Assembly: GCA_023105745.1 (NCBI GenBank)
Contig: JALGQZ010000018.1
Coordinates: 23,617,132 to 23,681,131 of the forward strand
Source of the DNA: Austropuccinia psidii
Taxonomy: Eukaryota > Basidiomycota > Pucciniomycetes > Pucciniales > Sphaerophragmiaceae
Reading direction: 5' to 3'
Length of the DNA: 64,000 nucleotides
In this document: positions 37,056-62,948 of the stretch, piece after piece
How positions within the stretch are numbered: position 1 is the first letter of the stretch
How the letters are laid out: every line of letters begins with the position of its first letter
Translations under genes and position numbers: made by a program
The notes under the pieces: generated by a model
Told to the model about the DNA's origin: nothing
Database searches by the model: none
The model's input: only the letters and a program-made list of their open reading frames with translations

Positions 37056-38942
37056 TTAATCTTCAGCGTCTTTTTCAAAATCTGATTCTTCCTCTTTGTC
37101 ATTGTGGTCCACTGTTTCCACACTTTCATTAATCTTTTCTTTTTTAATGCAATTATTGGCTAAGTGTCTAACACCTCCACATTTATGGCATTTTCTTTTC
37201 TCATTATTGTTGGGTGTATTGGGCTTGAAGGGTTCTCTTGGTTTATTTGGACTTTTTATGTCCAATTTTTTCCAAGTTCTACCAATATTAGTTCTTGTCA
37301 CTATATCTTCCAGTGAATTGATATATTCTTCTGTGGAGCATGGTTCTATGAACCTGCTTTTCAGGGCATGTTCTAATTCCCCTCAACATTTCTTAAGTAT
37401 CTTCATGTGCACCATCTTTTGGGAATTTTGTGGGTACAGTGCATTCAACCTTTCCACTTGTTTTAAGAACCAAGTCAAATTTTTATCCTTATCTGGATCA
37501 AAGAAGGAATTTTCAAATTAATTTACTATTTTTTACCACAAGGAATCATCTTCCCATTTGGTGATTATTTCATTTTTCCACCAAGACCAGGTATTTTTAC
37601 CATTGGTTTGTCTTATGCCATAATACCATCTTTTTTCAGATTTTTCAAATAATGAATGTAATCTTGCAGTGATTAATTCATCTGGTATAGAATAATCTTC
37701 TCGTAACATATCAATTTGTTTAATGAATGACATATGGTCATATTCACCCCTACCTGTGAATGTTGGCCATTCTTTTAATTGAGGTGCTTCCTTCATTAAG
37801 ACTTTGTTATTGTCTTGATTACTTAAGTATGTCATGAATAGATTTGTTATTTCCTCTTTTGGTTTAACAGGACTTCTTATGTGAGAAAATGGGGTTGATA
37901 ACTTTGGCATATTTAAGGTACCCTCATTTATTTTATCCATTCTTTCAGTAGTAAGTCTTATTTCACTTTGAATGTCATCCTTAAGATTCATTCTTGCTTC
38001 ATAACTCTTTTCTACATGGTCTAGAAGTAATTTTTGATGTGATTAAGTCTTTTCTTCAAATTTTTCAACAAAAATACTTAGTTTGTTTAATTTTTCTGTT
38101 GAATTGTCAATTCTCACATCATAATTGATTGTTAAAGTTTTTTCTTTGATATCTTCTTTGTATTTATACAATTCTTGTTGTCCTTGTATTAATTTTTGAG
38201 TATTGTAAATTAAAACTTTTGGTTCATTATTTTCAACCTGAAATTTAATGTTATCAATTTTTTTTTATTTTGAACAAAAATTTTTGTTCAAGATGATATG
38301 TTATTTATTTCTTGTAGGGATAATAGACCATTTTTAATGTCTTTAAGAGGTAAGATACTATTTTCTATTTCAGTCAAAGTATTTACAACATCAGGAGAAA
38401 AAGTAATTTTTTTGGGAAATGAGGCTTTCTCATTCTTTGTTCCTCTTTGTCCTTGAATTCCATAAAGGTTCTGGCCATGTTGAAGAAATTGTTCATGGAA
38501 TATTTTTTGGATTTTTGGGATCCTGTAACTTGGGAAATATTGTTTCCTACAATTATTTTTCTTTTTCTTCTTCCCTTCTTGGGGAAGCTGGTTGGCTTGA
38601 GGCTTTCTGGTAGAAGCTACTGGGGCTTCTTCCTTGCTTGCCTCTTTCTTTTTGGCATGGTATTCTTTTATCTTCTTAATTTTAGGGTTGGATTATAGTG
38701 GATTCCATTCATTGGAGTATCTCACTATTTCCTCCTCTTTGAGGAATTTTTTCAGGATATGCCAAAAGTTCATCACTCCTTGGTGGATTTGTGGCAACAT
38801 TGCCCAATCTTTGTCCTTGTAAACCATGTAATACCGCTTGTACTGGCTCATATGAATGTCTATTTGAGCCCTCTGGATGTGATTTGTCCCTGTTTGAGTT
38901 ACTCATACTCAGTTCCAATTCAGGTTCAGAAATCATGTGCAT
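37056..38942 (-). pseudogene. gag: gag of A1, broken
   Basis: The gag-frame ATG is at 38942 (MHMISEPELELSMS), open to 38709. After further breaks, including a shift near 38510, a coiled-coil part leads to the capsid-like block at 37991-37533 (ARLHSLFEKSEKRWYYGI). The zinc knuckle CHKCGGVRHLANNC at 37190-37149 keeps the full C-X2-C-X4-H-X4-C pattern. An acidic run follows. Gag would package element RNA in cytoplasmic particles. The apparent start codon lies inside a predicted intron (38953-38890), so Gag would need unspliced RNA. Confidence 0.8.
38404..38889 (-). pseudogene. Overlapping +1 accessory ORF of A1
   Basis: The frame entered after the predicted 64-nt intron reads TNHIQRAQIDIHMSQYK and NFWHILKKFLKEEEIV, then a stop near 38700. 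It goes on with APVASTRKP and YRIPK. Past the shift near 38510 it gives NNFFNMARTFMEFKDKEEQ. These last motifs match the +1 frame of A2 in the same order, although the two elements have diverged widely. The protein would be basic and helical. I recognise no domain. In this copy it carries at least one stop. Confidence 0.5.
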
Positions 38943-38953
38943 ATCTTGGACTT
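38890..38953 (-). other. Predicted 64-nt intron containing the gag ATG (A1)
   Basis: Donor CCAAAAG|GCAAGT (a GC-AG type intron), branch-like gtaactc, acceptor CTCAAACAG|GG. Phase 1. It contains the gag ATG (38942) near its 5' end. Without splicing, the upstream ORF ends at a TGA that overlaps the gag start (ATGCACATGA). The GC donor makes this prediction weaker than in B. Confidence 0.45.
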
Positions 38954-39314
38954 GCCTTTTGGATATGGCACTTCCTTGTGTGGATTCTGTTCAACTGGGG
39001 ATTTGGCTCTTTCTTTTGCCTTTTGAGGGATAAACTCTACTTCTGAGTCCACCTCCATCTGATTGAATGGAGTATTGGGATCCTCTTCAAGTAGTCATAG
39101 TAAAGATTTAAGAAACCAAAAGATTTCATAACACAAAGAAATCTTTTATGTCAATTAAAAAGGAGGTACTCACCTTCAGAGTCCTGAACAGTGGGTCCTG
39201 GAAAGACTAATTCCTCAGCTTTCTTTTTATTATTGACAATTGGTGTTGGAGAACTTGAACAAGTTTCTTCCACCAATCTTCAAGCAGTGGTTTGATTATC
39301 CTCTGCTGGGTTGT
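38954..39314 (-). pseudogene. Upstream ORF exons of A1
   Basis: Two exons, 39314-39174 and 39084-38954, around an 89-nt intron (39173-39085) with a strong GTGAGT donor and phase 1. Translated parts include SSSPTPIVNNKKKAEEL and, across the junction, EDPNTPFNQMEVDSEVEF. One in-frame TGA lies in the first exon. The upstream acceptor is CTTGCAG at 39315. It would form the N-terminal part of the accessory protein. Confidence 0.5.
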
Positions 39315-43584: not shown

Positions 43585-43692
43585 TATAAGCCTTTAAAGA
43601 TTAATATTGCCCAGAGGCCACTTGTAGATGTGAAAACAGCCTTTTAAGAAGTCTTAACTGACATTAAGCCATCTTTCTCCTGTTTGATTCAG

Positions 43693-43993
43693 TGGAAGAA
43701 ATCTTCATCCCACTTGATACCCAGTCACAGGTCAACAAACCAGGGACACCCTCATAACCAGAGGGCAGAAAGGGAAAAGGAAAGAGGGACAGTGAAGGCC
43801 TTATCGCAGCTGAAAGGTGGACACCAATTTCCACTCAGAGGAATAGAAAACCAAAAAACTCTGCATCAATACAAGCTAGACCAACCTTAATCACTTGTAC
43901 AGGGAATATTACAATTATTAACCCAGTTGTAACCTCTAAAGGCAAATTGCAAAAAGGCAGTAGAAAGAAAATTTGTACAAGGCACAGTAAAAG
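43693..43993 (+). pseudogene. Upstream ORF exon of B1, broken
   Basis: Follows a GATTCAG acceptor (to 43692) and reads EEIFIPLDTQSQ, then a stop. This is homologous to the open exon of B2 at 56989-56690. The last part (KFVQGTVK) is in the phase-1 frame before the donor GTAAAT at 43994. The intron 43994-44061 (68 nt) has the same length as in B2 and holds the gag ATG (44042). Its branch site reads ctgat instead of ctaac. Confidence 0.5.
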
Positions 43994-44041
43994 GTAAATA
44001 CCCTAAGAAAATTAAGTTTTTGACTGCTTTCAAACACTGAT

Positions 44042-45956
44042 ATGTCACCTGTACACCTCAGAAACCTTGGCTTCCAAAGGAATCGGCCAGAGGACAGAGA
44101 AGGCTTGTCCAGAGCCAGAAGACCTGGAGGAGGACACCTTGGACACAGTGGTGGATGGCAAGACACTGAGGGAAATAATACCCACTCTTCCATTCACTTT
44201 CCAATTCAGCAGGAACCTCAAACCAGAGGACTGGAAAGACATGGATCAAGTTCTTCAGCTCCACCAACTCCTCAAAGATTTATTTCAATGGAGCATGGAC
44301 AGCAAGAGGTTCAACCTGGCATCCCACTTGTCAGAACTTGGAGCAAGTTGCCAGAAGATTTGTCTCAAAGAGATAGAATTCAGAGACCTTGTGGTAATCA
44401 CCAAAGATTGGAATCCCACCAGGCAGTTCAGACTCCTGGAGGTGAGGGCAAACCGGATAAGGGAGAAGCAAGCCACTATCCAAGCTATAGAAGAACAGCT
44501 GACCCAGACAGGGAATATTCAGATTCCTTCAGGCTCACAAGGAGTAGACCAAACCAGCTCTCCAGTGGCTTCACACTATTCAGGAGCAAACAGATCAGTG
44601 GCCAAGAGTCACTATTCTTCACAATCCCAGGAAATTTCCAGGAGAAGACAAGGACACAAGGGAAAAAACAAGACCACCTTCAACCAAAGGAAGAGATATT
44701 CAGATCCAATGATCCAGAAGCTGTTGGATTTGGTAAAAGAAGTGCACAAGAACCAGAAGTAGTTGTAAATAACTCTACAATCAGTAGTCCCATTAATAGG
44801 AATATTACCCCCACTCAGATTGATCATAATGTTGTCACACCTGAGAGTAACCTAAACAGTGATGCACTGTGATTACAAATGTCCCAATTTTCTGAGCAAA
44901 CTCAAAAGAAGTTTGCAGAACTCCAAGAAAGCCATGAGAGGATGAAAACATTAACAGCCTCCATGGATAAAATTGTTAGAACTCTTCAAGAGGGACATTC
45001 TTGGTTGAGAAAAGCCTCTTAAGAGACCAACAAAAGACTGAATATAGTCTTTGAAGAACAACACCACAGAAAAACGGACAGGGATTGTCTGGATCAAGAC
45101 AGAAAAAACTGTTTAATGTCTACCATAATATGAAGCCCGAATCACAAGCCCATGTTATGGATAATCCATATCATCAAGATGACATCAAACCAGGTTCCAT
45201 GTTTATGAATAAGGAAATATCTCCATCACAATACCAGGATGGAGCTAATATGTCTTATTCAGAGAAGGAAGCCCTGAAACAGCTTCCTGAGGCCTCAAGC
45301 TGGCCCAAATTTTCTGGAACTGGAGAATATGATCATATGGAGGTCATAGATTATAATGAAGCTGGCCATGGTGGAAGAGTCAAATCATCCAAAAGTACAG
45401 AAATGGTACTTGGATATGGCAGAATACCATTTCATTTGAAAATGACAAATACTCTGTGGAAAAAGATCCATATGAGTGGCTTCTCTGAAAGTCTAAAAGA
45501 CTTGAAGCCATTGATCCTCAAATGAATATTCAGATGAGGAATCACAAACTCCTGACACAAATGCCAGGAGAACTAGAGCATGCAGTAAAATGCAGATTCA
45601 ACCACAATTGCACTCTAGATGACATTGCAAATACCTTACAAGATGTGAGTAAAAGAACTAACATAGGGAAATACACCCCATATAAAAGTAGTGGTTTCAA
45701 AGAGAAACAACCTTTCAGGGTGGAGTTTAAAGACAACCCCAGAGAAAGAGTGGAAGAAGTGGAAAAGAAAAGAAATTCTTGTCACAACTGTGGTTCAACA
45801 GACCACTATGCCAAAAACTGTCCAAACGCAAGGAAAAAAGTCTATGCAATTGAGAAAGTCCCAGAGGAGGAATCTCCAACAGAGGATTCTGACTCAGACT
45901 CTATGGGTGATTCCATCAGAGAACAATCTGATGATGACCAAGACCCAAGAGAATAA
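44042..45956 (+). pseudogene. gag: gag of B1, broken
   Basis: The gag frame opens at ATG 44042 (MSPVHLRNLGF) and stays open for 276 codons. The stop at 44870 (TGA where B2 has TGG) and one near 45019 interrupt the coiled-coil part (SQFSEQTQKKF). At 45350-45375 a deletion of about 120 bp, relative to B2, removes the core of the capsid-like domain, joining HMEVID to RRNWPWW-like sequence out of frame. The zinc knuckle CHNCGSTDHYAKNC at 45780-45821 is intact, followed by an acidic, Ser-rich spacer to the TAA at 45954. The product cannot assemble. Confidence 0.8.
44062..44762 (+). pseudogene. Overlapping +1 accessory ORF of B1
   Basis: Open for about 233 codons in the +1 frame across the 5' part of gag, ending at TAG 44760. 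There is no ATG at its beginning; the natural entry is the acceptor at 44061 (phase 1, giving ETLASKG). It reads like a folded, helical protein: PEDLEEDTLDTVVDGKTLRE, DWKDMDQVLQLHQLLKDLF, NPTRQFRLLEVRAN, and ends IQKLLDLVKEVHKNQK. The overlapping gag frame in the same DNA is polar and low in complexity. B2 has the same frame open over the same span. I recognise no family. Confidence 0.55.
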
Positions 45957-48900: not shown

Positions 48901-49304
48901 TTTTCTACAGCTTACCATCCACAAACAGATGGATTAGCTGAAAGGATGATCCAAACAATGGAAGACATCCTTAGAAGATTATGTGCCTATGGCATGTAAT
49001 ATAAGGACCATGAAGGTTACACCCATGACTGGGTTACCCTTCTACCAGCAGTACAACTGGCTTATAACAAAAGTAGGCACTCTACCACAGGAAAAACACC
49101 TGCCCTGGTAGAGAGAGGGTGGAATCCCTTATTGCCTGTGGATCACTTGAAGAAAAACCTTCTGACAATCCACCCCACAGCCAAAGATTTCCATGAAATG
49201 TGGAAGAGAGCTTGTGACACAGCTGCCAAATGCATACCTGAGGCAAAAGAATATAACAAGCAGAGGTCGGACAAATCACACATGGAACCTGACTTTAAAG
49301 AAGG
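45963..49304 (+). pseudogene. pol: pol of B1 up to the B2 insertion
   Basis: The protease block 45963-46541 has the active-site motif DSGA (FIIDSGAHCSIVA). RT follows with breaks at 46542, 46659, 46821 and 47164; its catalytic YIDD is intact just after 47190 (LYIDDIIIYS). RT thumb and RNase H (LYIDAACSQGLGAAL) run to 47777. Later pieces at 48059-48301 and 48314-48523 are the linker and integrase zinc region (ECHDCPYMGHMSEDR). The integrase core around 48640-49010 has SDRDPKFTS and [10 protein letters not shown]. The C-terminal domain is cut at 49304 by B2 and resumes at 59039. It was probably a single frame originally; now it is a pseudogene. Confidence 0.88.
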
Positions 49305-50741
49305 TGTCAGCTGAAGTCTATGTTGAAGCAGTAATTAGGCTATTTACAACTAGAATTATGACTGTGACATGTGGAAATAATTTTAAAATAAGAGTTTCAA
49401 TTTAATATAAAGGTTTATAATATAATACCAGGGTTCTACTATTGAAGAATAGTGGTGGTGAGCGCTATTGAGAACCCTGGGTGCAGTCTTACCAGTTGGA
49501 TTACTATAATAAGAGCTACAATAATTAAAATTATAATTATACCCTTATTATTACCCAAGAGTAAAACTGTTTTTGACAGGTTACTACGTAGGATATTCAC
49601 GAGCAGGATGAGGAAACAATTCTGGCTGTGGGAAGCCTCCTTTTTATCCTGAAATGGGGTGGAAAGGGTGCTAGACCTTTCCACGTAGAGGAAGTGAAGA
49701 TTTTTCACCCTCTAGTACAGGCTTGTGGTTTTCAAACAGCCTGTATAGCCTGCATTGGGCTCAGATGTGGCTTTGAAACCACATCTGGGCAGTTCTCACC
49801 AATACAGGGTGAAAATTTTCATCTGGGGACCTCACAGCCTGATTCTGACGTGTATGATGTGTAGAATGCTGTACAGAAACTGTATGGGACCCCAGTATTT
49901 ACTTACATATGAGGTGTTGAAGTAAGAACAAGCTTCTTTGTCTATTTGACACCTCATATTCATGGTTATGGGATATTATCCCATGGTAAGGCTGTATATG
50001 ACAGCAGGTGGGAATCTGACCTTAAAACAGCCATACCTTTGTCAATTCTTGAGATATCAACCTCAAAGTTGGTTCAGTGTGTAGCCCTATATGTGATCTA
50101 CACAATGGTACCTCATTTGATATAGGTATCATTAAATATGGCAAAGGTATCCCATGTACAAGACTTTTGTACATTTGCATGGTATAGGCAAAAAGCTGTA
50201 TTGAGCTTATTTTCCCCATACCTTTTGTTGTAGTTGAGCTATGGGGAAATGGATGACACCATTGGATAGCCCTGATTTTTCTCTTTCCAAAAAGACCCCA
50301 CTTCAAGTATCTCACACTAAAACTGTAGAAGTTAGATGAGAGGTGAATGTTTTGTTCACCCTTATTTGGCCTGAAATTGACCATAACTCCAGTAATATTG
50401 GTGCTAGCTCAGTTTGGCTGGTACCATTGGATAGCCCTGGCTTAGAGCTTTATTTTGAATACCCATTTGATGGGGTTAAGCCTCCCCTTCTGGATTTTAG
50501 ATGGGAGGTGAAAATTAAGGTTTATGCCCAGCAATAACTTTGAGTAGGAATAACTTTGTTATTCTTTATCCTATGGTGATGGGACTTATATTTTCATAAA
50601 GAGGTGAGTTTCCTCTTTCTTTTGATACCTTTTGAGCTGATTTGGCTCAGCTCAATTTTTTGGTGGTATCTTGGCTATACCATTGGTTTATGGTATTTTG
50701 GCTGTCATGCTTGTGCTCTGGGTTTGAGTCACAGGCTGACA
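49305..50741 (-). repeat. 3' LTR of B2
   Basis: Starts TGTCAGCTGAAG and ends CAGGCTGACA. Partner of 57598-59033, and related to the solo LTR 18977-20398 and to the 3' LTR of B1. Confidence 0.95.
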
Positions 50742-50760
50742 TACCCTCCCTCTAAAAAGG
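50742..50760 (-). other. Polypurine tract of B2
   Basis: On the - strand ctttttagagggagggta lies directly before the LTR. B1 has the matching aaaaggaagggta before 59521. Confidence 0.75.
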
Positions 50761-50764
50761 CTCA

Positions 50765-51883
50765 TCATTGATGAGACTGTTCAGTCCTCCTAGAGTCTAT
50801 GAACCTCCCTAAATGAAGGTTCCCATCTGGTATGGCATCTTTTGCCAACCATTTGTCCTTATCAGCTGTCTGGTTCTTGAATCTGACTAAGTACTGTCTT
50901 TGATCCTTCCGATTAAGTCTGATCTTTCTGGCCCTGATGATTTTACTCACAGGTCCTGGGGAATCCTCCAATTCCACTATCTCTGGTGGTGTGAGGATCT
51001 TCTTCCTGGAGGGGAATTTACCCTCCTCAGTTTGGAAGTATGGTTTGACCAAGCTCACTGGAAAGACTGGGTGTTTCCTGGAAAACTCCTCTGTGAGCTT
51101 GACTTCCACTGCATTCTTGCCTATCAACTTTATGATAGTGAAGGGCCCTACAAATGAGTCTCTCATCTTCTTGGGTCCTTTAAAATTGTTAAAGTTCAGT
51201 GTAGATACTAACACCTGGTCCCCTTCCTTAAAGTCAGGTTCCATGTGTGTCTTGTCCCACCTCTGCTTATTATAATCTTTTGCTTCAGCTATGCATTTAG
51301 CAGCTGTGTCACAAGCCCTCTTCCACATATCATGGAAGTCTTTGGCTTTGGGGTGAATGGTTAGAAGATTCTTCTTCAAGTGATCCACAGGCAACACAGG
51401 ATTCCACCCTCTCTCTACCAGTGCAGGTGTTTTTCCTGTGGTAGAGTGCTGACTTGTATTATAAGCCACTTGGAGAGCTGGTAGAAGGGTAACCCAGTCA
51501 TGGGTATATCCCTCATGGTCCTTATACTCCATGCCATAGGCACAGAACCTCCTAAGGATGTCCTCCATTGTTTGGATCATCCTCTCTGCCAGGCCATCTG
51601 TCTGTGGATGGTAAGCTGTGGAAAAGGCAAGCTTGGTGCCAAGCATGTCATACAAGTTGGTCCAAAATTCAGATGTGAATTTTGGGTCCCTATCACTAAT
51701 GATGATCTTAGGGACTCCACAGGTGGATATGATATTATTCCAAAGTAACAGAGAAGTATCCATGGCTGTATCCTCCTTGTGGCATGGTATACACCTCATG
51801 CTCTTGCTGAACCTATCAACTATGATCAAGCAGGCATTGTAGTTTTCTTTGCCTCCTGGGACAAGTCCTGTAACCCAGTCCAT
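50765..51883 (-). CDS. Integrase core and chromodomain-like tail of B2
   Basis: Continuous 372-residue frame, part of a once longer Pol. Residue 2 is the D of MDWVTGL. The catalytic triad is D23 (IIVDRFSKS), D64 ([10 protein letters not shown]) and E100 ([10 protein letters not shown]), with exactly 35 residues between D64 and E100. The GPF/Y module is at 246-280 (GPFTIIK to SLVKPY). The tail, about 315-365 ([18 protein letters not shown]), has the Tyr, Phe and Trp spacing of chromodomains, which in chromoviruses direct integration to particular chromatin. The stop is followed by the polypurine tract and LTR. Integrase would process and join cDNA ends, but this block is cut off from RT by upstream shifts. 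Confidence 0.85.
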
Positions 51884-52779
51884 GTTGATGGTTTCCCATG
51901 GGTGTTTAGGTTATTCTATATGTTGAAGTAACCCATACTTCTTCCCATGTTTCCTATTTGCCTTTTGGCATCTTTCACAAGTGTTAATATATTCACTCAA
52001 CTCTTATTCCCACTTGGGCCACCAAGCTGTGCTTGCTACCCTCTCCTTGCTCCTGTCTTCACTCATGTGTCCCATATAGTGGCAGTCATGGCATTCCTGC
52101 AGGATCAAGGAGATGTGGTCTCTGTCTACCACTGTGAGTGTACTTGTGTGTTTCTCTCTGTGGTAGAGCAGGCCATCTATAAGGAAGAACTTGTTATCCT
52201 TATAGGCCCTCAACCAGGGTTCTTCCAGCTGGGATTCCAGTTCTGGACTCCTGTACTTTTGTTGAAGGAGCTGTAGAAGTATGCCACACTGTTTGTGTTT
52301 GGCATAAGACTTCGGTACTGCACTAAAAATTTAATTGTGCAGTTCAGAGGAGCTTATTCCCAATATGGGAGTTTCTGTCCCCTCTGAATCAGTGTTTCCA
52401 CTGTCAAGGGTACCCCTTTCTGGTGCCCTTTCAGAAAATCTGAAGTTCTTCCTCCTATCTATTTCCATGAAATGGATAGGGATTTTGGCTGCAACTTCAG
52501 GGTCATAAGCTGGATTGCTCTTGACATTATCCAGTGGCCATCTGCATTGGTATGACTTTTACCTTCTTTGTATATGATGGTAATGTTCCCTCTATACTCC
52601 TGGATGGCTATTTGCCATCTCAGCATGTATCTATTTGTAGTCTTCAAGTTCAGTAAAGACTTCAAGGCTGTGCAGTCTGTGTAGACTTCAAAGACTGCAC
52701 CCTCCAGATAATAATGATGTTTTTTTAGAGCCCAGGCTAGACATAGACACTCAGTCTGGGTGGCCCCATACTTGGCTTC
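51884..52779 (-). pseudogene. RNase H end, linker and integrase zinc region of B2
   Basis: Joins the RT block to the integrase core. After the TAA that ends the 676-residue frame, the same frame continues through RNase H ([17 protein letters not shown]) to about 52540. A frameshift there, next to the word SHTNADG, moves the reading into another frame. The block 52213-52004 carries the HHCC-type zinc region (ECHDCHYMGHMSEDR) and ends at a TAA. A further CERCQ-like piece lies near 51960. This stretch holds most of the inactivating lesions of B2. Confidence 0.8.
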
Positions 52780-54810
52780 TTAATCTTTCAGTTGCCCTGA
52801 GATGTAGCAAATTACTCCTTCTCTTGGTTCACCATCCACAATTTGTCTTTGGTGAAGGGCTGCTCCTAGGCCTTGACTACATGCTGCATCTATGTATAAC
52901 TTGAATGGTAGTTCAAAGTCAGGTAAGATGAGCACAGGTTCATTTGTGAGTTCATATTTGATCCTCTCATATGCATCCCTCCTTTCGTTGGTGATCTCAA
53001 TAACTACATCTTTTGAACACAACTTGCATAAACTACTATTCATGTGGGCAAAATTCTTTATGTGCTTTCTATAGTAGCTAGCAAACCCAAGGAAAGATTG
53101 CATCTCTTTGATGCTCTTTGGTACTGGCTTTTGCAGTACTGCTGCTACTTTATTCTGGTCAATTGCCAGACTAAGACCTGAGACTTTATGTCCTAGAGCC
53201 AGTAACTCTTGTTGGCCAAAATTGCAACTTTTAAGTGAAATTTTCAGATTCATGGGTGTGCATTTACTTAACACTCTGTCTATGTATTGCACATGGTCTT
53301 CCCATGTCTCTGAGTATATAATGATATCATCAATATATACCACCATCCAGCCTTCCAGTATTTCTTCTTGAAATATTGTTTCCATCATCCTTTGGAAGTG
53401 GGCTGGTGCATTTATGATGCCAAATGGCATCCTGGTATACTCATATATACCCATATGGCATATTTTTCTGAGTAATTTCATGGAGTTTGGTTTAACTCCA
53501 TTTCTGTGGAAGCCTTTCATACAATCCATTTTGGTGATGTATTTGGCTTTTGCCAGTTTATCCAAGGCATAAAGTATCCTGGGTATAGGGTACCTGTCTG
53601 CTTTTGTGTAGTTATTCAGAGCTCTGAAGTCTCCACACAGTCTAGACTTGCCATCATGCCAGGTGATTAGGACAGGGGTGGTGATTTCTACTATTTCATT
53701 ATGTCCAATCTTCCTGATGACATCTATGTCCAGGAGTTCATTGATATTTTTCTCAATTTCTCTCCTAGTTTCCAGGCTTTCTGGATAAGGAGGTCTCCTA
53801 AGCATGGGTGGATAAGGTCTTTCCACATCCAGATATAGTTCTATATCATGGCCTTTGATCTTGCCTAATGGTTCTTCACCAATGGCAAATGCTGGTCTGT
53901 TCTTTCTCAGAATCTTCAGTAAACTCAGTTTCTGTTTACTAGTGAGGGTATTGCTAAACTGTCCCTCTCTGAATTCCTTCAGAAGGTCTTCTAGTGGATC
54001 TTGAGAAGATATCTGGTATATATCAAGTAAAAACTTCTTTTCCTTGTTAGTACCAATGGTGATGTGCCTATTTTTACTGTTGTAAATGTCTATGCCATAC
54101 ATCCTCTGGTAATCTGTTCCCAGTAAAAACCCTGGGATGTGGGCGTCATTAAGCACTAAAGACCCTGGGATGTGGGCGTCATTAAGCACTAAAAACCCTG
54201 GGTTGAGTCTGATATTACCCTTCCTGTGGGGTATAATTATCTCTTTGATAATTGTCCCAATGGAAGTCATCTTCCCTGTTGCACTTTTAAATTTCTTTAC
54301 CTTAGTGGGCAAGAGCTGTTTTTCCCAATTTGGGAAGTGGTTATCCAGATAATTTCTGGCCACTATGGAGCACTGTGCTCCACTGTCAATGATCAGTGGG
54401 TGCTGAGCATTTTCAGTACAGACAGTCATTTTTGTGGCTGTTCCATATATGTATGCCATTCCTTTGGTTGGTGTAACCAGGAATGTTTGGGCATCTTGTG
54501 TATGTTTGCACAAGTTTTTGTTGGCAGTATCTTGTGGCATGCCTGCTTCCAACTGTATGTCTTGAATTTCCAGTGGGGTTTCCACTTGGTACTCCACTAG
54601 AAATTCCTCTCTTGGGTCCTGTTCAACATCAGATTGTCCTCTGATGGCATCACCCATAGAGTCTGATTCAGAATCCTCTGGTGGGGATTCTTCCTCTGGG
54701 ACTTTCTCAATGGCATAGACTTTTTTCTTTTCCTTTGGACAGTTGTTGGCATAGTGGTCTGTTGAACCACAATTGTGACAAGAATTTCTCTTCTTTGCCA
54801 CTTCTGCCAC
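52780..54810 (-). CDS. Gag zinc knuckle, protease and RT of B2
   Basis: Longest open frame of the window, 676 residues. Zinc knuckle C11-C24 (CHNCGSTDHYANNC), acidic spacer, aspartic protease with D142-S-G-A (54387-54376). The RT fingers and palm follow: GDFRALNNYTKADRYPIP near residue 393, MDCMKGFH, YEYTRMPFG and catalytic YIDD at residues 492-495. The thumb has ALGHKVSGLSLAIDQNK, and the RNase H start LYIDAACSQGLGA is at 638-650. It converts element RNA to cDNA in cytoplasmic particles. An 11-codon tandem duplication (LVLNDAHIPG twice) lies between protease and RT. The frame ends at a TAA within RNase H. It is one frame with the second gag block, suggesting a single Gag-Pol polyprotein. Confidence 0.92.
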   Translation of the reverse strand: MAEVAKKRNSCHNCGSTDHYANNCPKEKKKVYAIEKVPEEESPPEDSESDSMGDAIRGQSDVEQDPREEFLVEYQVETPLEIQDIQLEAGMPQDTANKNLCKHTQDAQTFLVTPTKGMAYIYGTATKMTVCTENAQHPLIIDSGAQCSIVARNYLDNHFPNWEKQLLPTKVKKFKSATGKMTSIGTIIKEIIIPHRKGNIRLNPGFLVLNDAHIPGSLVLNDAHIPGFLLGTDYQRMYGIDIYNSKNRHITIGTNKEKKFLLDIYQISSQDPLEDLLKEFREGQFSNTLTSKQKLSLLKILRKNRPAFAIGEEPLGKIKGHDIELYLDVERPYPPMLRRPPYPESLETRREIEKNINELLDIDVIRKIGHNEIVEITTPVLITWHDGKSRLCGDFRALNNYTKADRYPIPRILYALDKLAKAKYITKMDCMKGFHRNGVKPNSMKLLRKICHMGIYEYTRMPFGIINAPAHFQRMMETIFQEEILEGWMVVYIDDIIIYSETWEDHVQYIDRVLSKCTPMNLKISLKSCNFGQQELLALGHKVSGLSLAIDQNKVAAVLQKPVPKSIKEMQSFLGFASYYRKHIKNFAHMNSSLCKLCSKDVVIEITNERRDAYERIKYELTNEPVLILPDFELPFKLYIDAACSQGLGAALHQRQIVDGEPREGVICYISGQLKD
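54129..54194. repeat. 33-bp tandem duplication inside B2 pol
   Basis: Two identical-length units, 54129-54161 and 54162-54194, both containing accctgggatgtgggcgtca. The length is a multiple of three, so the reading frame is preserved. B1 has a single copy (LDDAHIQGFLLG). Confidence 0.95.
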
Positions 54811-55083
54811 TCTTTCTTTGGGTTTGTCTTTAAGCTCTACCCTGAAAGGTTGTTTCTCTTTGAAACCACTTCTCTTATATGGGGTGAATTTCCCTATATT
54901 AGTCCTTTTCCTTATGTCTTGTAAGGTGTGGGCAATGTCATCTAGAGTTCAATTTTGGTTGCATCTGCATTTTACTGCATGCTCTAGTTCTCCTGGCAGT
55001 TGTGTCAGAAGCTTGTGATTCCTCATTTGGATATTCATCTGAGGATCAATGGCTTTAAGTCTTTTAGACTGTCTAAGACACCA

Positions 55084-56641
55084 CTAATATGGATCTCTGT
55101 CCACTGAATATTTGTCATTTTCAAATGAAATGGTCTTCTGCCATATCCAAGTTCCATTACTGTACTTTTGGATGATTTTAATCTTCCACCATGGCCAGTT
55201 TCTTCTGCCATGGATTTCTTTCATTTCTGTGTACCATATACCAGCATGACCTTTAAATGCAGTATTCAATCTAGCAGTAATCCAGTAGTCTGGTATGCTT
55301 GGTACATCAATGAAGAGTCCATCAATAGAATCTATTAGTTCCATATGATCATATTCTCCTGATCCAGAGAATTTGGGCCAGCTTGAGGCCTCAGGAAGCT
55401 GTTTCAAGGCTTTCTTCTCTGAATAAGACATTCCATCTCCATCCTGGTATTGTGATGGAGATCTTGCCTTATTCATCAACATGGCATCTGGTTTGATGTC
55501 ATCTGGTTGATATGGATTCTCCATAACTTGGTCTTGTGGTTGGGGCTTCAAGCTATGGTAGATATTAAAAAATTTGTTTATGTCTTGGTGCAGACAATGC
55601 CTGTCCCTTTTTGGTTTTGTGTTGTTCTTCAAAGACTAGATTCAGTCTTTTGTTAGTTTCTTCAGAGGCTTTGCTCAATTTAGCTTGTACTTCTTGAAGA
55701 TTTTCAACTATTTTTTCCATGGAGGCTTGTAATTCTTTCATCCTCTCATGGCTGGCTTCAAGTTCTGAAAACTGCTTTGCAGATTGCTCAGTATATTGGG
55801 ACATTTGTAACCACAGTTTATCACTGTTGATGTTACTCTCAGATGTGACAATGTTATGTTCAGTCTGAGTGGGGGTAATGTTTTGATTACTAGGACTACT
55901 GATTCTAGAGTGGTTTACAACTACTTCTGGTTCTTGTGCACTTCTTTTACCAAATCCAACAGCTTCTAAATCATAGGGTCTGACTCTTTCCTCCTCTGGT
56001 TGAAGGAGGTTTTGTTCTTGACCTTGTTTCCTTGTCTTATCTTGGAAACTTCCTGGAATTGTGAAGAATGGTGACTCTTGGCCACTGATCTGCTGGTTTC
56101 TGAATGGTGTGAAGCCACTAGAGAGCTGATTTGGCCCGCTCCTTGTGAGCCTGAAGGAATCTGAGTAGGCCCTGTCTGGGTTAACTGTTCTTCTATAGCT
56201 TGGATAGTGGCTTGATTCTCCCTTATCCTCTGTGCCCTTGCCTCCAGGAGTCTGAACTGCCTGGTAGGATTCCAACCTTTGGTGACTACCATCAGGTCTT
56301 TGAAGTCTATCTCTCTGAGACAGATCTTCTGGCAACTTTCTCCAAGTTCTGCCCAGTGAGATGCCATGTTGAACCTCTTTTTGTCCATGCTCCATTGGAA
56401 TAAGTCCTTGAGGAGTTGGTGGAGCTGAAGAACTTGATCCATGTCTTTCCAGTCCTCTGGTTTGAGGTCTCCATTTAATTGGAGTGTGAATGGCAGGGTT
56501 GATCTTATCTCCCTCATTGTTTTGCCATCCACTACTTTGTCCAAGGTGTCCTCTTTCAGGTCTTCTGGTTCTGGACAAACCTTCTCTGTCCTCTGGTTGG
56601 TTCCTTTGGAAGCAAAGATCTCTGAGGTGTACAGGTGACAT
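55084..56641 (-). pseudogene. gag: gag of B2, nearly complete, one shift and two stops
   Basis: The gag frame starts at ATG 56641 (MSPVHLRDLCF) and is open for 358 codons to 55565. Its last part is a coiled coil (ELEASHERMKELQASMEKIV). A single-base shift near 55600 carries gag into the frame of 55632-55084, the capsid-like block: ASSWPKFSGSGEYDHMELI, then WITARLNTAFKGHAGIWYTE. Stops at 55084 and near 54955 separate this from the zinc knuckle frame at 54810. The gag ATG lies in a predicted intron, so Gag would be made only from unspliced RNA. Confidence 0.82.
55966..56621 (-). CDS. Overlapping +1 accessory ORF of B2
   Basis: 218 codons open from the acceptor at 56622 to a stop at 55966-55968, in the +1 frame over gag. 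The phase-1 junction gives EIFASKGTNQRTEKVC. Then come PEDWKDMDQVLQLHQLLKDL, FNMASHWAELGESCQKICL, NPTRQFRLLEARAQRI, and a Ser/Lys-rich C-terminal end. It is predicted to be helical and soluble: no membrane segment, no signal peptide. It matches the B1 frame over its whole length. There is no ATG at the start, which fits entry by splicing. It may be an accessory protein of the element. I recognise no family. Confidence 0.55.
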
Positions 56642-56689
56642 GTTAGTGTTTGCAAGCAGTCAAAAACTTTATGTTCTTAGGGTATTTAC
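56622..56689 (-). other. Predicted 68-nt intron containing the gag ATG (B2)
   Basis: Donor CAAAG|GTAAAT, branch CTAAC directly before the gag ATG (ctaacatgtcacc), acceptor CACCTCAG|AG. Phase 1. This is the best-formed of the three gag-leader introns. B1 keeps donor, acceptor and length. Confidence 0.6.
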
Positions 56690-56989
56690 CTTTGACTGTT
56701 CCTTGTACAAATTTGTTGTCTGCTTATTTGGGCAATTTACCTTTAGAGGTTACAACTGGGTTAATTATATTAATTTTCCCTGTACAAGTTATCAAGGTTT
56801 GTTTACCTTGTATTGATGCAGAATTTCTTGGTTTTCTACTGTTCTGTGTGGCAATGGGTGTCCACTTCTTTGCTGTTATCAGGCCTTCACTGTGCCTCTT
56901 TCCTTTGCCTTTGCTGCCCTCTGGTTCTGAGGGTGTCACTGGTGTGTTGGCCTGTGACTGGCTTTCAAGTGGTATGAAGTTATCTTCCA
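56690..56989 (-). pseudogene. Upstream ORF exon of B2
   Basis: Begins after a GATTCAG acceptor (to 56990) and reads EDNFIPLESQSQANTPVTP. Then come SEGLITAKKWTPIATQNSRK and TCTGKINIINPVVTSKGK, with one TAA at 56724 just before ADNKFVQGTVK and the donor. It has no ATG at its beginning, so its start should lie in an earlier exon. It is polar and basic. Splicing would place it N-terminal to the accessory frame. The TAA is one C-to-T step from CAA. Confidence 0.5.
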
Positions 56990-57580
56990 CTGAATCAAAA
57001 CAGGAAAGAGAGGGCTTATGTTAGTCAAGACTTCTCAAAAAATGCTGGTTTTGCACGTCTAAGAATGGCCTCTGGGCTTGTATATTATTACAATGTGCCC
57101 TTGTATAATGACAGTGTGATTGAATTAACAATTCCACGTCAGAAATACAGCTTACTGATATTTGGTATACTATTTGTATACCAATATCTCACAGAATAAC
57201 TTGTAATTAGCAAGTGTAAACTGTCAAAAGGTGGTGTGTAACAGGGCAATTGAGCTAACAATATGTCCAACCACACCTCAACTGTTGGTTTATCAGTATG
57301 AGGTGTCTTAATTTAATTAAAAAATGAGACTGTATTAATGGCTTAAGTGTTTTTATATGTAAAACACACCAAAAATAAGGGTCTTGTGGTTATTAGCCAT
57401 GTGGCAGATACTCTTAAAATATGAGTATAAAGTGGTATATATACCAAAAAAAGAATAATATATATATAATATATATATTTTTAAGAAATATTATGCCTAA
57501 AAAGAATAAAAAAACTGTCAGAAAGTGAGAAATAAGAGAAAAAACTCACTTATAAGGGTCCAAAAAAAAGGTTTAAAACA
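56990..57580 (-). other. Leader of B2 with a possible long intron
   Basis: No coding frame. On the - strand it has a GTGAGT donor at 57549, a CTAAC branch (ttgactaacataag) and the GATTCAG acceptor at 56990, which would make an intron of 560 nt. Exon base A at 57550 joined to TG at 56989 would create an ATG in frame with EDNFIP. This is speculative. A (TA)n stretch lies near 57460-57480. Confidence 0.3.
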
Positions 57581-57597
57581 TGGCCAGGCCCCCAAAA
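57581..57597 (-). other. Primer-binding site of B2
   Basis: On the - strand ttttgggggcctggcca follows the 5' LTR. It is the family A box with one more T, although the LTRs of A and B are unrelated apart from the terminal TG/CA. Confidence 0.7.
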
Positions 57598-59033
57598 TGT
57601 CAGCTGGAGTCTATGTTGAAGCAGTAATTAGGCTATTTACAACTAGAACTATGACTCTGACGCGTGGAAATAATTTTAAAATAAGAGTTTCAATTTAATA
57701 TAAAGGTTTATAATATAATAACAGGGCTCTACTATTGAATAATAGTGGTTGTGAGTGCTATGGAGAACCCTGGTTGCAGTCTTATCAGTTGGATTACTAT
57801 AATAAAAGCTACAATAATTAAAATTATAATTATACCCTGATTATTACCCAAGAGTAAAACTGTTTTTGACAGTTTACTACATAGGATATTCAAGAGCAGG
57901 ATGAGGAAACAATTCTGGCTGTTAGAAGCCTCCTTTTTATCCTGAAATGGGGTTGAAAGGGTGCTAGACCTTTCCACGTAGAGGAAGTGAAGATTTTTCA
58001 CCCTCTAGTACTGGCTTGTGGTTTGCAAACAGCCTGTATAGCCTGTATTGGGCTCAGATGTAGTTTTGAAACCACATCTGGGCATTTTTCACCAATACAG
58101 GGTGAAACTTTTCATCTGGAGACCTCACAGCCTGATTCTGATGTGTATGATGTGTAGAATGCTGTACAGAAACTGTATGGGACCCCAGTATTGACTGAAA
58201 TATGAGGTGTTGAAGTAAAAACAAGCTTCTTTGTCTATTTGACACCTCATATTCATGGTTATGGGATATTATCCCATGGTAAGGCTGTATATGACAGCAG
58301 GTGGGAATCTGACCTTAAAACACCCATAACTTTGTCAATTCTTGAGATATCAACCTCAAAATTGGTTCAGTGTGTAGCCTGTATGTGCTCTACACAATGG
58401 TACCTCATTTGATATAGGTATCATTAAATATGGCAAAGTTATCCCATGTACAAGATTTTTGTACATTTGTGTGGTATAGGCAAAAAGCTGTATTGAGCTT
58501 ATTTTCCCCATAAATTTTGTTGTAGTTGTGCTATGGGGAAATGGATGACACCATCAGATAGCCCTGATTGTGCTCTTTCCAAAAAGACCCCACTTCAAGT
58601 ATCTCACACTAAAACTGTAGAAGCTAGATGAGAGGTGAATGTTTTGTTCACCCTTATCTGGCTTGAAATTGACCATAACTCCAGTGATATTGGTTCTAGC
58701 TCAGTTTGGCTGGTACCATTGGATAGCCCTGGCTTGAAGCTTCATTTTGAATACCCATTTGATGGGGTTAAGTCTCTCCTTCTGGATTTTAGATGAGATA
58801 TGAAAATTAAGGTTTATGCTCAGCAATAACTTTGAGTAGGAATAACTTTGTTATTCTTTGTCCTATGGTGATGGGACTTATATTTTCAGAAAGAGGTGAG
58901 TTTCCTCTTTCTTTTGATACCTTTTGAGCTGATTTGGCTCAGCTCCATTTTTTTGTGGTATCTTGGCTATACCATTGGTTTATGGTATTTTGACTGTCAT
59001 GCTTGTGCTCTGGTTTTGAGTCACAGGCTGACA
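57598..59033 (-). repeat. 5' LTR of B2
   Basis: 1436 bp. Begins TGTCAGCTGGAG and ends CAGGCTGACA, followed by the GAAGG duplication. It should contain the element promoter, but no element could be placed confidently. Confidence 0.95.
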
Positions 59034-59038
59034 GAAGG

Positions 59039-59520: not shown

Positions 59521-62500
59521 TGTCAGCCTGTGACTCAAAACCAGAGCACAAGCATGACAGCCAAATACCATAAATCAATGGTATAGCCAAGATACCACCA
59601 GAACATGGAGCTGAGCCAAATCAGCTCAAAAGATATCAAACAAAAGAGGAAAATTACCTCTTTCCAAATATACAAGTCTCATCCTCATAGGACCAAGAAT
59701 AACAAAGTTCTTCCTGCTCAAAGCTGGGGCTGAGCATAAACCTTAATTTTCACCTCTCATCTGAAATACAGAGTAATAGGCTTAGCCTCATCAAATGGGT
59801 ATCCAAAATGAAGCTCCAAGTAAGGGCTATCCAATTGTACCAGCCAAACTGAGCTAGCACCAGTATTACAGAAGTAATGATCAGATTCAGGCCAAATAAG
59901 GGTGAATAAAATATTCACCTCTCATCTAGCTTCTACAGTTTTAGTGTGAGATACCTAAAGTGGGGTCTTTTTGGAAAGAGCACAATCAGGGCTATCTGAT
60001 GGTTCCATTCATTTCCCCATATCTCATCTAGAACAAAAGCTATAAAGCAAACAAGCCCAATACAGCTTTTTTCCTAAAACACACATATGTACAAAAGCTC
60101 TTGTACATGGGATACCTTTGCAATATTTAATGATAGCCATATCAAATGAGATACCATTGTGTAGAACACATACAGGGCTACGAATTGGACCAATTTTGAG
60201 GTTGATATCTCAAACACTGACAAAGATATAGCTGTTTTAAGGTCAAAATCCCACAGTTTGGCCAATACAGCCTTACCATTGGTTAATATCCCTGTGAGCC
60301 TTTGAGATATGACCTCATATCCAAAAGTGTCACAGCAAAGTTTCTGTAATAAATGCACTTATGATAATTATCTCAAAAATTAGTAAAATACCATAAATAA
60401 GTACGAAATCTGAATTAAAGAAGAATCTAATGAAAAAACATGTGAAATAAGTTACACCATTAGATTCCTCATGGTAAAATACACATATGTAATCTTTATG
60501 GCATATCTGAAAAGTCAATAATTACTGAAGTATAAGTAATAATATCTTAAAAAAGGTACAAAACCTCATTTATCTCAGAAACCAATGAATCAACATGTAA
60601 AATACATTGTACCATTGGATTCTCCATAAACCTCTACACATAACACAATTATAAAGCTAATCTCCAAAGTTAATACTTAAGGAATTAAGCTGAATATATG
60701 CACTTTTTGGGTCAATGCATATATTCATGGCTTTTAGCTAATATCTCTTGAAATATACAAGATGGAGAGATAAACCAAAGATAAAGTCACCACATAAATA
60801 CTGTAGGAATACAGATATGAACTTTGGTTCACAAGTCATAAACAAGGTTAAAACTTGTAATGGATTATTGAATAAAATCAATAGAGCTGTTTACCACTTT
60901 GTGGTGAAAGTGGTACAAACTTAAAAAAAGGTCACAGTCAGATTCTACTAGTTAATACGTGCAGAATGAAGTAGTTTTTGATAATATTCAAGGTATAACC
61001 CTCTGAAATCATGGTTTGAAGTTTAAAATATTGAATTTTGACAGAAAAGAGGAGTTACAAGAAAAATCATCAAAAATAGAGTTTTGATGATGTAATGAAA
61101 TTCTCTTGGAAGTTTAATAAGGACATGCCAAGCTCTCAGAATAGCTGTAGCATGTATAACGTAAAAGTTATCAATGATCAAAGTTTAAGCTTAAATTTGA
61201 TCATTTATGATCACTCACTGTAATATTATTTTAAGCTTAACAGTCATATAAGTGGAAAACTGATTAATACTAATAAAATCCACTAATTTTAGGCTTCTTC
61301 CAAGCCTATGATGTCATTAAACTTAGAGTTATAGTGATAACTCTAAATAATGGTGTAATAATGAGATAAGATGGTTTGATCATGATGTAATCATCACTAA
61401 ACCTTAAAATATTGATCATTTCTAGTAGAAAGCATAAGTACATCTCTACTAGAAGCCTTCTGGACTCTAGAAGGGAGGTATTTACTATAAAGAGAGCTCT
61501 TTTTACTCTATTTTCCCCTCAGATGCTTACAAAACACTAAATAATTAAATCAAAAAAAGGTAAATTCTTTATTCTTTATATACAAAACTTTTATATTATT
61601 AAAGACCAAAGATCATCTTTATTATAATTATCAATCTTGATGTGATTACTTCAATTATTTAACTTTTTTGTTAAATTTCTCTTAAAAATCTCAAATCCAT
61701 GTAAAATCAAGATAATTTGTAATTTCTCTTAATTTTTATTGTAAATAAAATTTAAATAGGTTTTATTTATATTATTTGGCGTAAAATCATTCAAAATTAC
61801 TATATTAAGTGTTAAAAGTAGGTTATTTCCTCTTATTATAATAATTTTCTCTCTATTATTACTTTAATAATTCTTTAATTAATATAAATAGTATTTATAT
61901 TAATTTATAACTCTAATATTGGTAATATTATTGTTATTAATTGTTGTTTCTTAATAAAAACCAACGTTTTATGCCTTTATTATTTGCTGGTAACAATAAT
62001 AAAGTGCTTTTGAATATATTAGTTATTATATCTTAATATATTATTTTATTTATTCAATGATATAATTATCTTTACACCTTAATTAGAATAATTCTTTATT
62101 ATTATAATTATTTTTTATCTTATTTACTTTATTTATAAGGACATTCAGAGTACAATAAGAAAAATATTAGTAATTTTTACTTATTGTTTCATAGTCAAAC
62201 TTTACAATCCCACAACCATGATTATGAGGTGTCAAACAGACCAAGAATCTTGTTTTTACTTCAGAACCTCATAGTTCATTCAATACTGGGGTCCCATACA
62301 GGTTCTGTACAGAATTCTACGTGTCATACATGTCAGAATCAGGCTGTGTGGTCTCCAGATGAAAATCTTCACCCTGTATTGGTGGAAACTGCCCAGATGT
62401 GGTTTCAAACCCACATCTGATCCCAATACAGGATATACAGGCCTTTTTCAAACCACAAGCCTGTCCTGGACAGTGAAAAATCTTCACTTTTCCTACGTTA

Positions 62501-62838
62501 AAAGGTCTAGCAGCCCTTTCACCCAATTTCAGGATATAAGGAGGCCTTTTCACTGCCAGAAAAGGAATTCCTATGTAGTACAACTGTCAAAAACAGTTAT
62601 ACTATTGGAAAATAATCAGGTTATACTATAAACTTTAGTATTTTAGTCTTTTGTTAGTGTAACCCAACAGATAAAGCTGCACCCAGGGCTTTCAACAATG
62701 CTCACCACCACTAATTCTCCTTAGTAAAGCCCTTTTAATGTATAATTGAACCTTCTTTAATACTTTTTATCCATGTCACAGTCATATTTAAAGTTGTAAA
62801 TAGCCTTATTATTTCTTTATCATGGACTCATCCTGACA
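59521..62838 (+). repeat. 3' LTR of B1, split by a solo LTR
   Basis: Starts TGTCAGCCTGTGACTC and ends catcctgaca. The net length is about 1.4 kb after removing the nested LTR and one duplication copy. It is in opposite orientation to the B2 LTRs and to 18977-20398. No partner 5' LTR exists in the window. Confidence 0.9.
60293..62206 (+). mobile_element. Solo LTR of A1 type
   Basis: 1914 bp, starting TGTGAGCCTTTGAGATATGAC and ending AACTTTACA. It is flanked by the duplication ATCCC (60288-60292 and 62207-62211) and aligns along its length with the A1 LTRs in reverse. It inserted into the B1 3' LTR, so family A was active after B1 arrived. Confidence 0.95.
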
Positions 62839-62948
62839 CTTCCTTTGTTTCTTTTTGAGAATATTTAATATTAAAAGATTCTATATTTAACAAAAAATAT
62901 ATACAAAAAAGGATAATTTAGATAAATCCTTATAATTGAAATCTCATT

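What the first reader, a model, noticed from the sequence alone, without database searches (positions are those of the whole stretch)
56622..56989. gag start codon lies inside a small intron whose removal fuses an upstream ORF to the +1 frame (B2)
A 68-nt intron with donor GTAAAT, branch CTAAC and acceptor CAG joins the upstream exon (KFVQGTVK) in phase 1 directly to EIFASKG, the start of the +1 frame, which itself lacks an ATG. The gag ATG sits between branch and acceptor, so splicing deletes it. Retention versus splicing would therefore be a switch between Gag-Pol/genomic RNA and an accessory protein. B1 keeps the same intron length and borders.
Basis: partly seen in the sequence, partly recalled or inferred. 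Interest (0 to 1): 0.88.

Follow-up and report, generated by a model that had tools for sequence, protein, structure and literature searches.

The report
Splice-dependent overlapping gene in fungal retrotransposon
In a jumping element of a myrtle-rust-like fungus, a tiny intron carries the start codon of the particle protein, so splicing it out would instead make a second protein read in another frame from the same DNA; the design recurs in gene models from many copies, but no RNA evidence was available here.

Summary
B2 is an LTR-bounded Ty3-type element (minus strand, nested inside B1). A 68-nt GT-AG intron (56689-56622) joins an upstream open frame in phase 1 to EIFASKG; it contains branch CTAAC and the gag ATG (56641). 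B1 keeps length, borders and ATG. The 120 listed relatives of the +1-frame protein (of 943) are Austropuccinia psidii MF-1 hypothetical proteins. Of 171 listed +1-frame models, 92 join an upstream exon to this acceptor, via three donors. Of 120 listed gag-frame models, 103 begin at the intronic ATG. The 956-nt leader has 2 ATGs against 14 expected. B1/B2 divergence fits constraint on both frames better than on either alone, but gag pN/pS by itself looks neutral, and a second test is mixed. Best reading: unspliced RNA gives Gag-Pol; spliced RNA gives a basic accessory protein overprinted on gag. Not shown: any spliced read, the spliced product's start codon, its function, or a regulated switch. 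B2 itself has a stop between donors 2 and 3 and one near the +1-frame end. The genome search did not complete. New variant of a known kind; published RNA-seq could test it.

The parts
57598..59033 (-). 5' LTR of B2, TGTCAGCC...GCTGACA
   Evidence: 1437-column match to the 3' LTR at 95.0%; ends read directly; 5-bp duplication GAAGG at 59034-59038 and 49300-49304
49305..50741 (-). 3' LTR of B2
56990..57155 (-). candidate first leader intron, 166 nt, GTAAGC...CTAAC...TTTTGATTCAG; removing it would bring A and TG together as an ATG in front of GAAGATAAC
   Evidence: sequence reading; 11 listed models begin at the GAA codon after this acceptor, as expected if the exon starts there; the start codon is not conserved in relatives
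56690..56989 (-). upstream coding exon (VEDNFIPLESQ...KFVQGTVK); TAA at 56726-56724 in B2
   Evidence: pN/pS 0.50 between B1 and B2, joint P 0.018 under neutrality in 3000 runs
56801..56806 (-). donor 1 (CAAG|GTAAAC), phase 1; lost in B1
   Evidence: 4 of 171 models
56735..56740 (-). donor 2 (AAAG|GTAAAT), phase 1
   Evidence: 8 of 171 models
56622..56689 (-). the 68-nt intron from donor 3
   Evidence: 80 of 171 models
56642..56646 (-). branch motif CTAAC (CTGAT in B1)
55565..56641 (-). gag open frame starting at the intronic ATG (358 aa in B2)
   Evidence: 103 of 120 homologous models start here
55924..56621 (-). +1 frame, the second part of the spliced protein (EIFASKG...EVHKNQK); stop TAG at 55968-55966 in B2, open to 44759 in B1
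52780..54948 (-). zinc knuckle, reverse transcriptase, start of RNase H
   Evidence: Pfam zf-CCHC, RVT_1, RT_RNaseH_2
50765..51910 (-). integrase core and SH3_Tf2-1 domain
   Evidence: Pfam rve, SH3_Tf2-1
43994..44061 (+). the same 68-nt intron in B1
44042..44872 (+). B1 gag open frame
44016..44762 (+). B1 +1 frame, open over the whole overlap

Best explanation
The element's 5' region codes for two proteins. Unspliced RNA is scanned through an ATG-poor leader to the first long-ORF ATG, which lies inside a small, probably weak-donor intron, and makes Gag(-Pol); the same RNA would be the genome. When the intron is removed, that ATG is lost and an upstream exon is joined to the +1 frame. The product is a roughly 330-aa basic accessory protein overprinted on the N-terminal 230 or so codons of gag. 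Shown here: the anatomy, its recurrence among gene models of other copies, and a B1/B2 divergence pattern that fits constraint on both frames. Inferred: that splicing occurs, that both proteins are made, and that the ratio matters to the element.
For: Exact anatomy in B2 and B1. 92 of 171 listed +1-frame models in A. psidii MF-1 join an upstream exon to this acceptor: 80 from donor 3, 8 from donor 2, 4 from donor 1 (fuzzy matching; a strict pattern QGT[VFL]K[EDG] is in 60 of 171 and exact KFVQGTVKE in 27). 103 of 120 listed gag-frame models begin within 4 substitutions of MSPVHLRDLGFQRN, the ATG inside the intron, and 73 of 120 carry a loosely matched motif showing that the frame continues toward capsid; P0128, which starts there, reaches a zinc knuckle (20.9 bits, cut-off 20.8). 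Leader: 2 ATGs against 14.0 expected, 0 of 5000 shuffles as low. B1/B2 overlap: pN/pS 0.46 and 1 stop in the +1 frame, 0.69 and 0 stops in gag, 1.13 and 15 stops in the third frame. Taking pN/pS and stops together, 1000 runs per setting: constraint on gag alone (two strengths) reaches the +1 values in 0.000 of runs, +1 alone (two strengths) reaches the gag values in 0.001 or less, no constraint gives 0.004 and 0.010, and both together fit. The upstream exon is constrained too (P 0.018). Predicted structure: helices between 139 and 252 and at 310-335 in the spliced protein; the gag-frame overlap is predicted disordered, with a confident long helix only after it.
Against: No RNA evidence at all. 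The MF-1 models may be purely ab initio. Gag pN/pS on its own is what neutrality gives (0.69 against a neutral mean of 0.73, P 0.46) and higher than simulated gag constraint gives; the gag case rests on having no stops (P 0.023). One search uses one pair of dead copies and constraint strengths that I chose. Mean conservation in the overlap (0.849 and 0.846) is no higher than in the gag-only part (0.843), and the substitution-position test gives little support for the +1 frame (pos1/pos2 1.89 in the overlap against 1.76 outside). No pair of models from one and the same DNA in both frames was found. The start codon of the spliced product is unresolved: the residue at the candidate junction is V 18, L 14, M 11, absent 11, other 3 of the 57 (of 291) proteins that cover it. 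B2 is broken in the upstream exon. The structure model is weak (mean pLDDT 56) and matches no known fold.
Confidence: 0.6

Rival explanations
1. Only gag is translated. The +1 frame and the intron are relics or chance, and the recurring exon structure is a gene-finder habit applied to related copies.
For: No RNA evidence; the mixed position test and the lack of extra conservation in the overlap; no model pair from one DNA in both frames.
Against: The +1 frame is open in B1 and has one stop in B2 while the third frame has 15; constraint on gag alone reaches the observed +1 pN/pS in 0.001 or fewer of 1000 runs. The upstream exon is constrained as well. The same acceptor serves 92 of 171 models.
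Confidence: 0.2
2. Splicing is constitutive, and the spliced protein is the real N-terminal Gag; Gag-Pol is then reached by frameshifting from the +1 frame, and the intronic ATG is little used.
For: The +1 product looks more structured than the gag-frame overlap, its pN/pS is lower, and gag pN/pS alone is not below neutral.
Against: The gag frame has 0 stops in the overlap; the intronic ATG is kept and is the start of 103 of 120 models; the whole unspliced leader, intron candidates included, is ATG-poor, as expected if it is scanned.
Confidence: 0.12
3. The +1 protein is made without splicing, by leaky scanning past the gag ATG to an internal ATG (KDMDQ) or from a non-AUG codon.
For: KDMDQ has M in 148 of the 169 models carrying the motif.
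Against: Three ATGs lie between the gag start and that codon in B2; it would leave the constrained upstream exon and the shared acceptor unexplained.
Confidence: 0.08

Closest known systems
BARE1 (barley Copia element) spliced subgenomic RNA, PMC3735527 (outline with abstract, and Results section 11, seen)
   Same: Facultative small intron in an LTR element (104 nt there); spliced and unspliced RNA pools have different coding roles.
   Different: In BARE1 the intron lies at the start of pr and splicing gives a Gag-only RNA; here it removes the gag start and opens a second frame overlapping gag. BARE1 splicing is shown by cDNA; here it is not.
Drosophila copia spliced Gag RNA (recalled)
   Same: Splicing as the lever on Gag versus Pol.
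   Different: There it favours Gag; here it would abolish Gag initiation.
Complex retroviruses with spliced regulatory proteins such as Rev, Rex, Tat (recalled)
   Same: Unspliced RNA for Gag-Pol and genome, spliced RNA for a small basic protein; the protein here has an Arg/Lys-rich stretch (found by a loose pattern in 115 of 171 models, 4-7 basic residues of 13).
   Different: No function, RNA binding or export activity shown; no env looked for or seen; different region of the element.
Other A. psidii Gypsy elements (PMC8063080, passages seen)
   Same: The genome is over 90% TE, mainly Gypsy.
   Different: The passages seen do not describe this leader or a second frame; PMC12210899 and PMC12774611 have 0 occurrences of 'gag'.

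Membership tests
Ty3/gypsy LTR retrotransposon | paired LTRs with TG...CA ends and target duplication | tested here: met
   95.0% over 1437 columns; GAAGG on both sides
Ty3/gypsy LTR retrotransposon | RT and RNase H before integrase | tested here: met
   RVT_1 and RT_RNaseH_2 in 54948-52780, rve in 51910-50765
Ty3/gypsy LTR retrotransposon | Gag with zinc knuckle | tested here: met
   zf-CCHC, 22.2 bits against cut-off 20.8
chromovirus branch of Ty3/gypsy | chromodomain at the end of integrase | tested here: inconclusive
   B2: none listed at E 1; B1 part: Chromo 15.1 bits, below cut-off 25.1
LTR element with facultative splicing (BARE kind) | spliced and unspliced transcripts observed | not testable with these tools
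   no RNA data; gene models only
LTR element with facultative splicing (BARE kind) | GT-AG intron conserved among copies | tested here: met
   at DNA level only B1 and B2; 92 of 171 protein models imply it for other copies
complex-retrovirus-like regulatory protein (Rev/Rex kind) | binds the element's RNA and changes export or splicing | not tested
   only an Arg/Lys-rich stretch and a C-terminal helix seen

The most novel reading that the evidence does not exclude
A fungal retrotransposon with a retrovirus-like early/late logic: the doubly spliced RNA gains its only start codon at a splice junction (A|TG) and makes a basic accessory regulator, while the unspliced RNA keeps the gag start codon inside the second intron. 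Each RNA form would then have exactly one usable start, and the accessory protein could feed back on splicing or export.
Probability: 0.12. Interest if true: 0.85.

Novelty: new variant of a known kind. Interest (0 to 1): 0.6.

Why it matters
If real, a high-copy fungal transposon family codes two proteins in one stretch and uses splicing of the gag start codon to choose between them, a logic known best (recalled) from complex retroviruses. It would give a handle on how a genome grew to a gigabase, and a natural case for studying dual-frame constraint with many copies. It should be testable on RNA-seq data that the genome papers describe.

Tried and rejected
Codon usage to decide which frame is older: no clear difference between frames. 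Substitution-position test on protein models: gag constraint in the overlap plausible, +1 constraint barely. Compatibility of same-contig-length model pairs (P0049/P0165, P0285/P0238): 180 of 220 and 145 of 182 positions compatible, below the median of all pairs (0.844), so not the same DNA; the best of 20507 pairs was 0.967. Pfam gave nothing credible for the spliced protein; no PDB sequence match at E 1; no fold match at E 0.001. Relatives in viral contigs and genome contigs: none confirmed. A splice-made ATG as a general rule was considered and not adopted, because relatives carry L or V at that codon. Literature: the searches listed no paper whose title or abstract start names this arrangement; I saw only the passages and sections named in the report. 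One search used a B1 start shifted by 3 nt and is discarded; one search is the corrected run. One search printed the joined junction peptide in a wrong frame; the phase was read from the frames.

Full report
What is there. The finding lies in B2, an LTR element on the minus strand. Its LTRs are 59033-57598 and 50741-49305, 95.0% alike over 1437 columns. It is bounded by the 5-bp duplication GAAGG at 49300-49304 and 59034-59038, so it sits inside B1, whose matching sequence stops at 49304 and resumes at 59034. Pfam places a zinc knuckle, reverse transcriptase and RNase H in 54948-52780 and integrase in 51910-50765, the order of Ty3/gypsy elements. The 120 listed relatives of the +1-frame protein (of 943 found) and the 120 listed relatives of the gag frame (of 1574) are all Austropuccinia psidii MF-1 hypothetical proteins; the unlisted ones were not seen. 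The window is most likely that rust or a very near relative.

The observation. The 68-nt intron is at 56689-56622. CTAAC is at 56646-56642 and the gag ATG at 56641, so the first 20 nt of gag lie in the intron. B1 has 68 nt at 43994-44061 with the same borders and ATG and branch CTGAT. Identity between B1 and B2 is 0.926 in the intron, 0.840 in the upstream exon and 0.867 in the overlap. Two more donors of the same kind (AAG|GTAAA) lie in the same phase at 56806 and 56740. All three have A rather than the usual G at +5, which I take, from general knowledge, as weak. Intron-like strings are not rare in this window, about one per 2,500-2,800 nt per strand, so recurrence is the real test.

Recurrence. 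I classified all 171 +1-frame proteins listed, by fuzzy matching. 80 join at VQGTVK|E, 8 at VVTSK|E and 4 at SASIQ|E, all to the same acceptor. 45 lack the N-terminal anchor, 19 are too short, 9 read the intron's end in the +1 frame (two of them joined to an acceptor inside the intron), 5 are other and 1 mixes both. A strict pattern, QGT[VFL]K[EDG], is in 60 of 171, exact KFVQGTVKE in 27. Of the 120 gag-frame proteins listed, 103 start within 4 substitutions of MSPVHLRDLGFQRN, one has it inside and 16 lack it; 73 carry a loosely matched motif that continues toward capsid. P0128 starts there and reaches a zinc knuckle, just above the cut-off. These are predictions, and I do not know whether RNA was used to make them. 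They show that many diverged copies keep the same exon structure, not that it is spliced. Models of the two frames on contigs of equal length turned out to be different copies.

Leader. From the LTR end to the gag ATG (956 nt) there are 2 ATGs against 14.0 expected, with 0 of 5000 shuffles as low; from 57155 to 56642 there are 0 against 7.2, again 0 of 5000; from 56989 to 56642, 0 against 4.4 (18 of 5000); B1 43655-44041, 0 against 4.1 (27 of 5000). Control stretches inside gag are not depleted in this way (522 and 4720 of 5000 shuffles as low or lower). This fits scanning of the unspliced RNA to the intronic ATG. It also means that the upstream exon has no start of its own. In B2 a candidate first intron (57155-56990, GTAAGC, CTAAC, TTCAG) would place A next to TG and make an ATG. 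Among the 57 of 291 listed proteins that cover this codon the residue is V 18, L 14, M 11, absent 11, other 3. The start of the spliced protein is therefore open.

Two frames under constraint. Between B1 and B2 over 718 nt with 88 differences, pN/pS is 0.69 (gag), 0.46 (+1) and 1.13 (third frame), with 0, 1 and 15 stops in B2. Taking pN/pS and stops together, in 1000 simulated runs per setting, gag constraint alone (0.5 and 0.3) reached the +1 values in 0.000, +1 constraint alone (0.4 and 0.3) reached the gag values in 0.001 and 0.000, no constraint gave 0.004 (+1) and 0.010 (gag), and constraint on both fitted. Against this: gag pN/pS alone is what neutrality gives (neutral mean 0.73, P 0.46), so the gag case there rests on having no stops (P 0.023). 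The upstream exon gave pN/pS 0.50 (P 0.029; with stops, joint P 0.018). These rest on one pair of dead copies. A second test, on variants in the protein models, was mixed: pos1/pos2 rates were 0.80 (+1 overlap, 171 of 171 proteins used), 1.89 (gag overlap, 120 of 120), 1.76 (gag only, 117 of 120), 1.45 (non-overlapping part further on, 45 of 120) and 0.94 (upstream exon, 93 of 171), and the overlap was no more conserved than the gag-only part. The first figure suggests that gag constrains the overlap, though the upstream exon, which overlaps nothing known, is also low; the rest add little for the +1 frame. Codon usage did not tell which frame is older.

The products. AlphaFold2 on P0006 with 54 other rows (53 models and the B1 frame) gives helices between 139 and 252 and at 310-335, a disordered upstream exon and mean pLDDT 56. 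The gag-frame protein P0125 (43 other rows) is predicted disordered over the overlap and has a long helix at 267-340, mean 40. No match by fold at E 0.001, by PDB sequence, and nothing credible in Pfam. P0006 has net charge +16 and pI 9.6; a loose pattern finds an Arg/Lys-rich stretch with 4-7 basic residues in 115 of 171 models. A Rev-like role is only a thought.

Literature. Seen: passages of PMC8063080, PMC7951889, PMC12210899 and PMC12774611; outline with abstract, and section 11, of PMC3735527. BARE1 is the nearest documented case of facultative splicing in an LTR element that I saw. The searches listed no title or abstract start that names a gag-overlapping spliced frame in a fungal element; only the top listings were seen, and most subscription papers are outside that library.

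Verdict. A splice-dependent, gag-overlapping accessory protein is the best reading (0.6). The regulated switch is a hypothesis that RNA-seq could settle. More copies would have sharpened the case, but the genome search did not answer in 15 tries.

Noticed in passing
49300-59038: B2 is inserted, in opposite orientation, into the integrase region of B1, with a 5-bp duplication GAAGG; B1 resumes at 59034.
   Followed up: yes
56690-56807: Three near-identical donors (AAG|GTAAA) in one phase within 120 nt, each used by some gene models.
   Followed up: partly
57597-56642: The leader, including both intron candidates, has only two ATGs (57581 and 57400).
   Followed up: yes
38699-39046: Another Ty3-type element in the window (its pol matches B2 pol at 48%) also has long open frames on both strands upstream of gag; not examined for a similar layout.
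   Followed up: no
59563-60292 and 62207-62846: Further pieces in inverted orientation that match the B2 LTRs at about 73-90%, probably the other LTR of B1, split.
   Followed up: no
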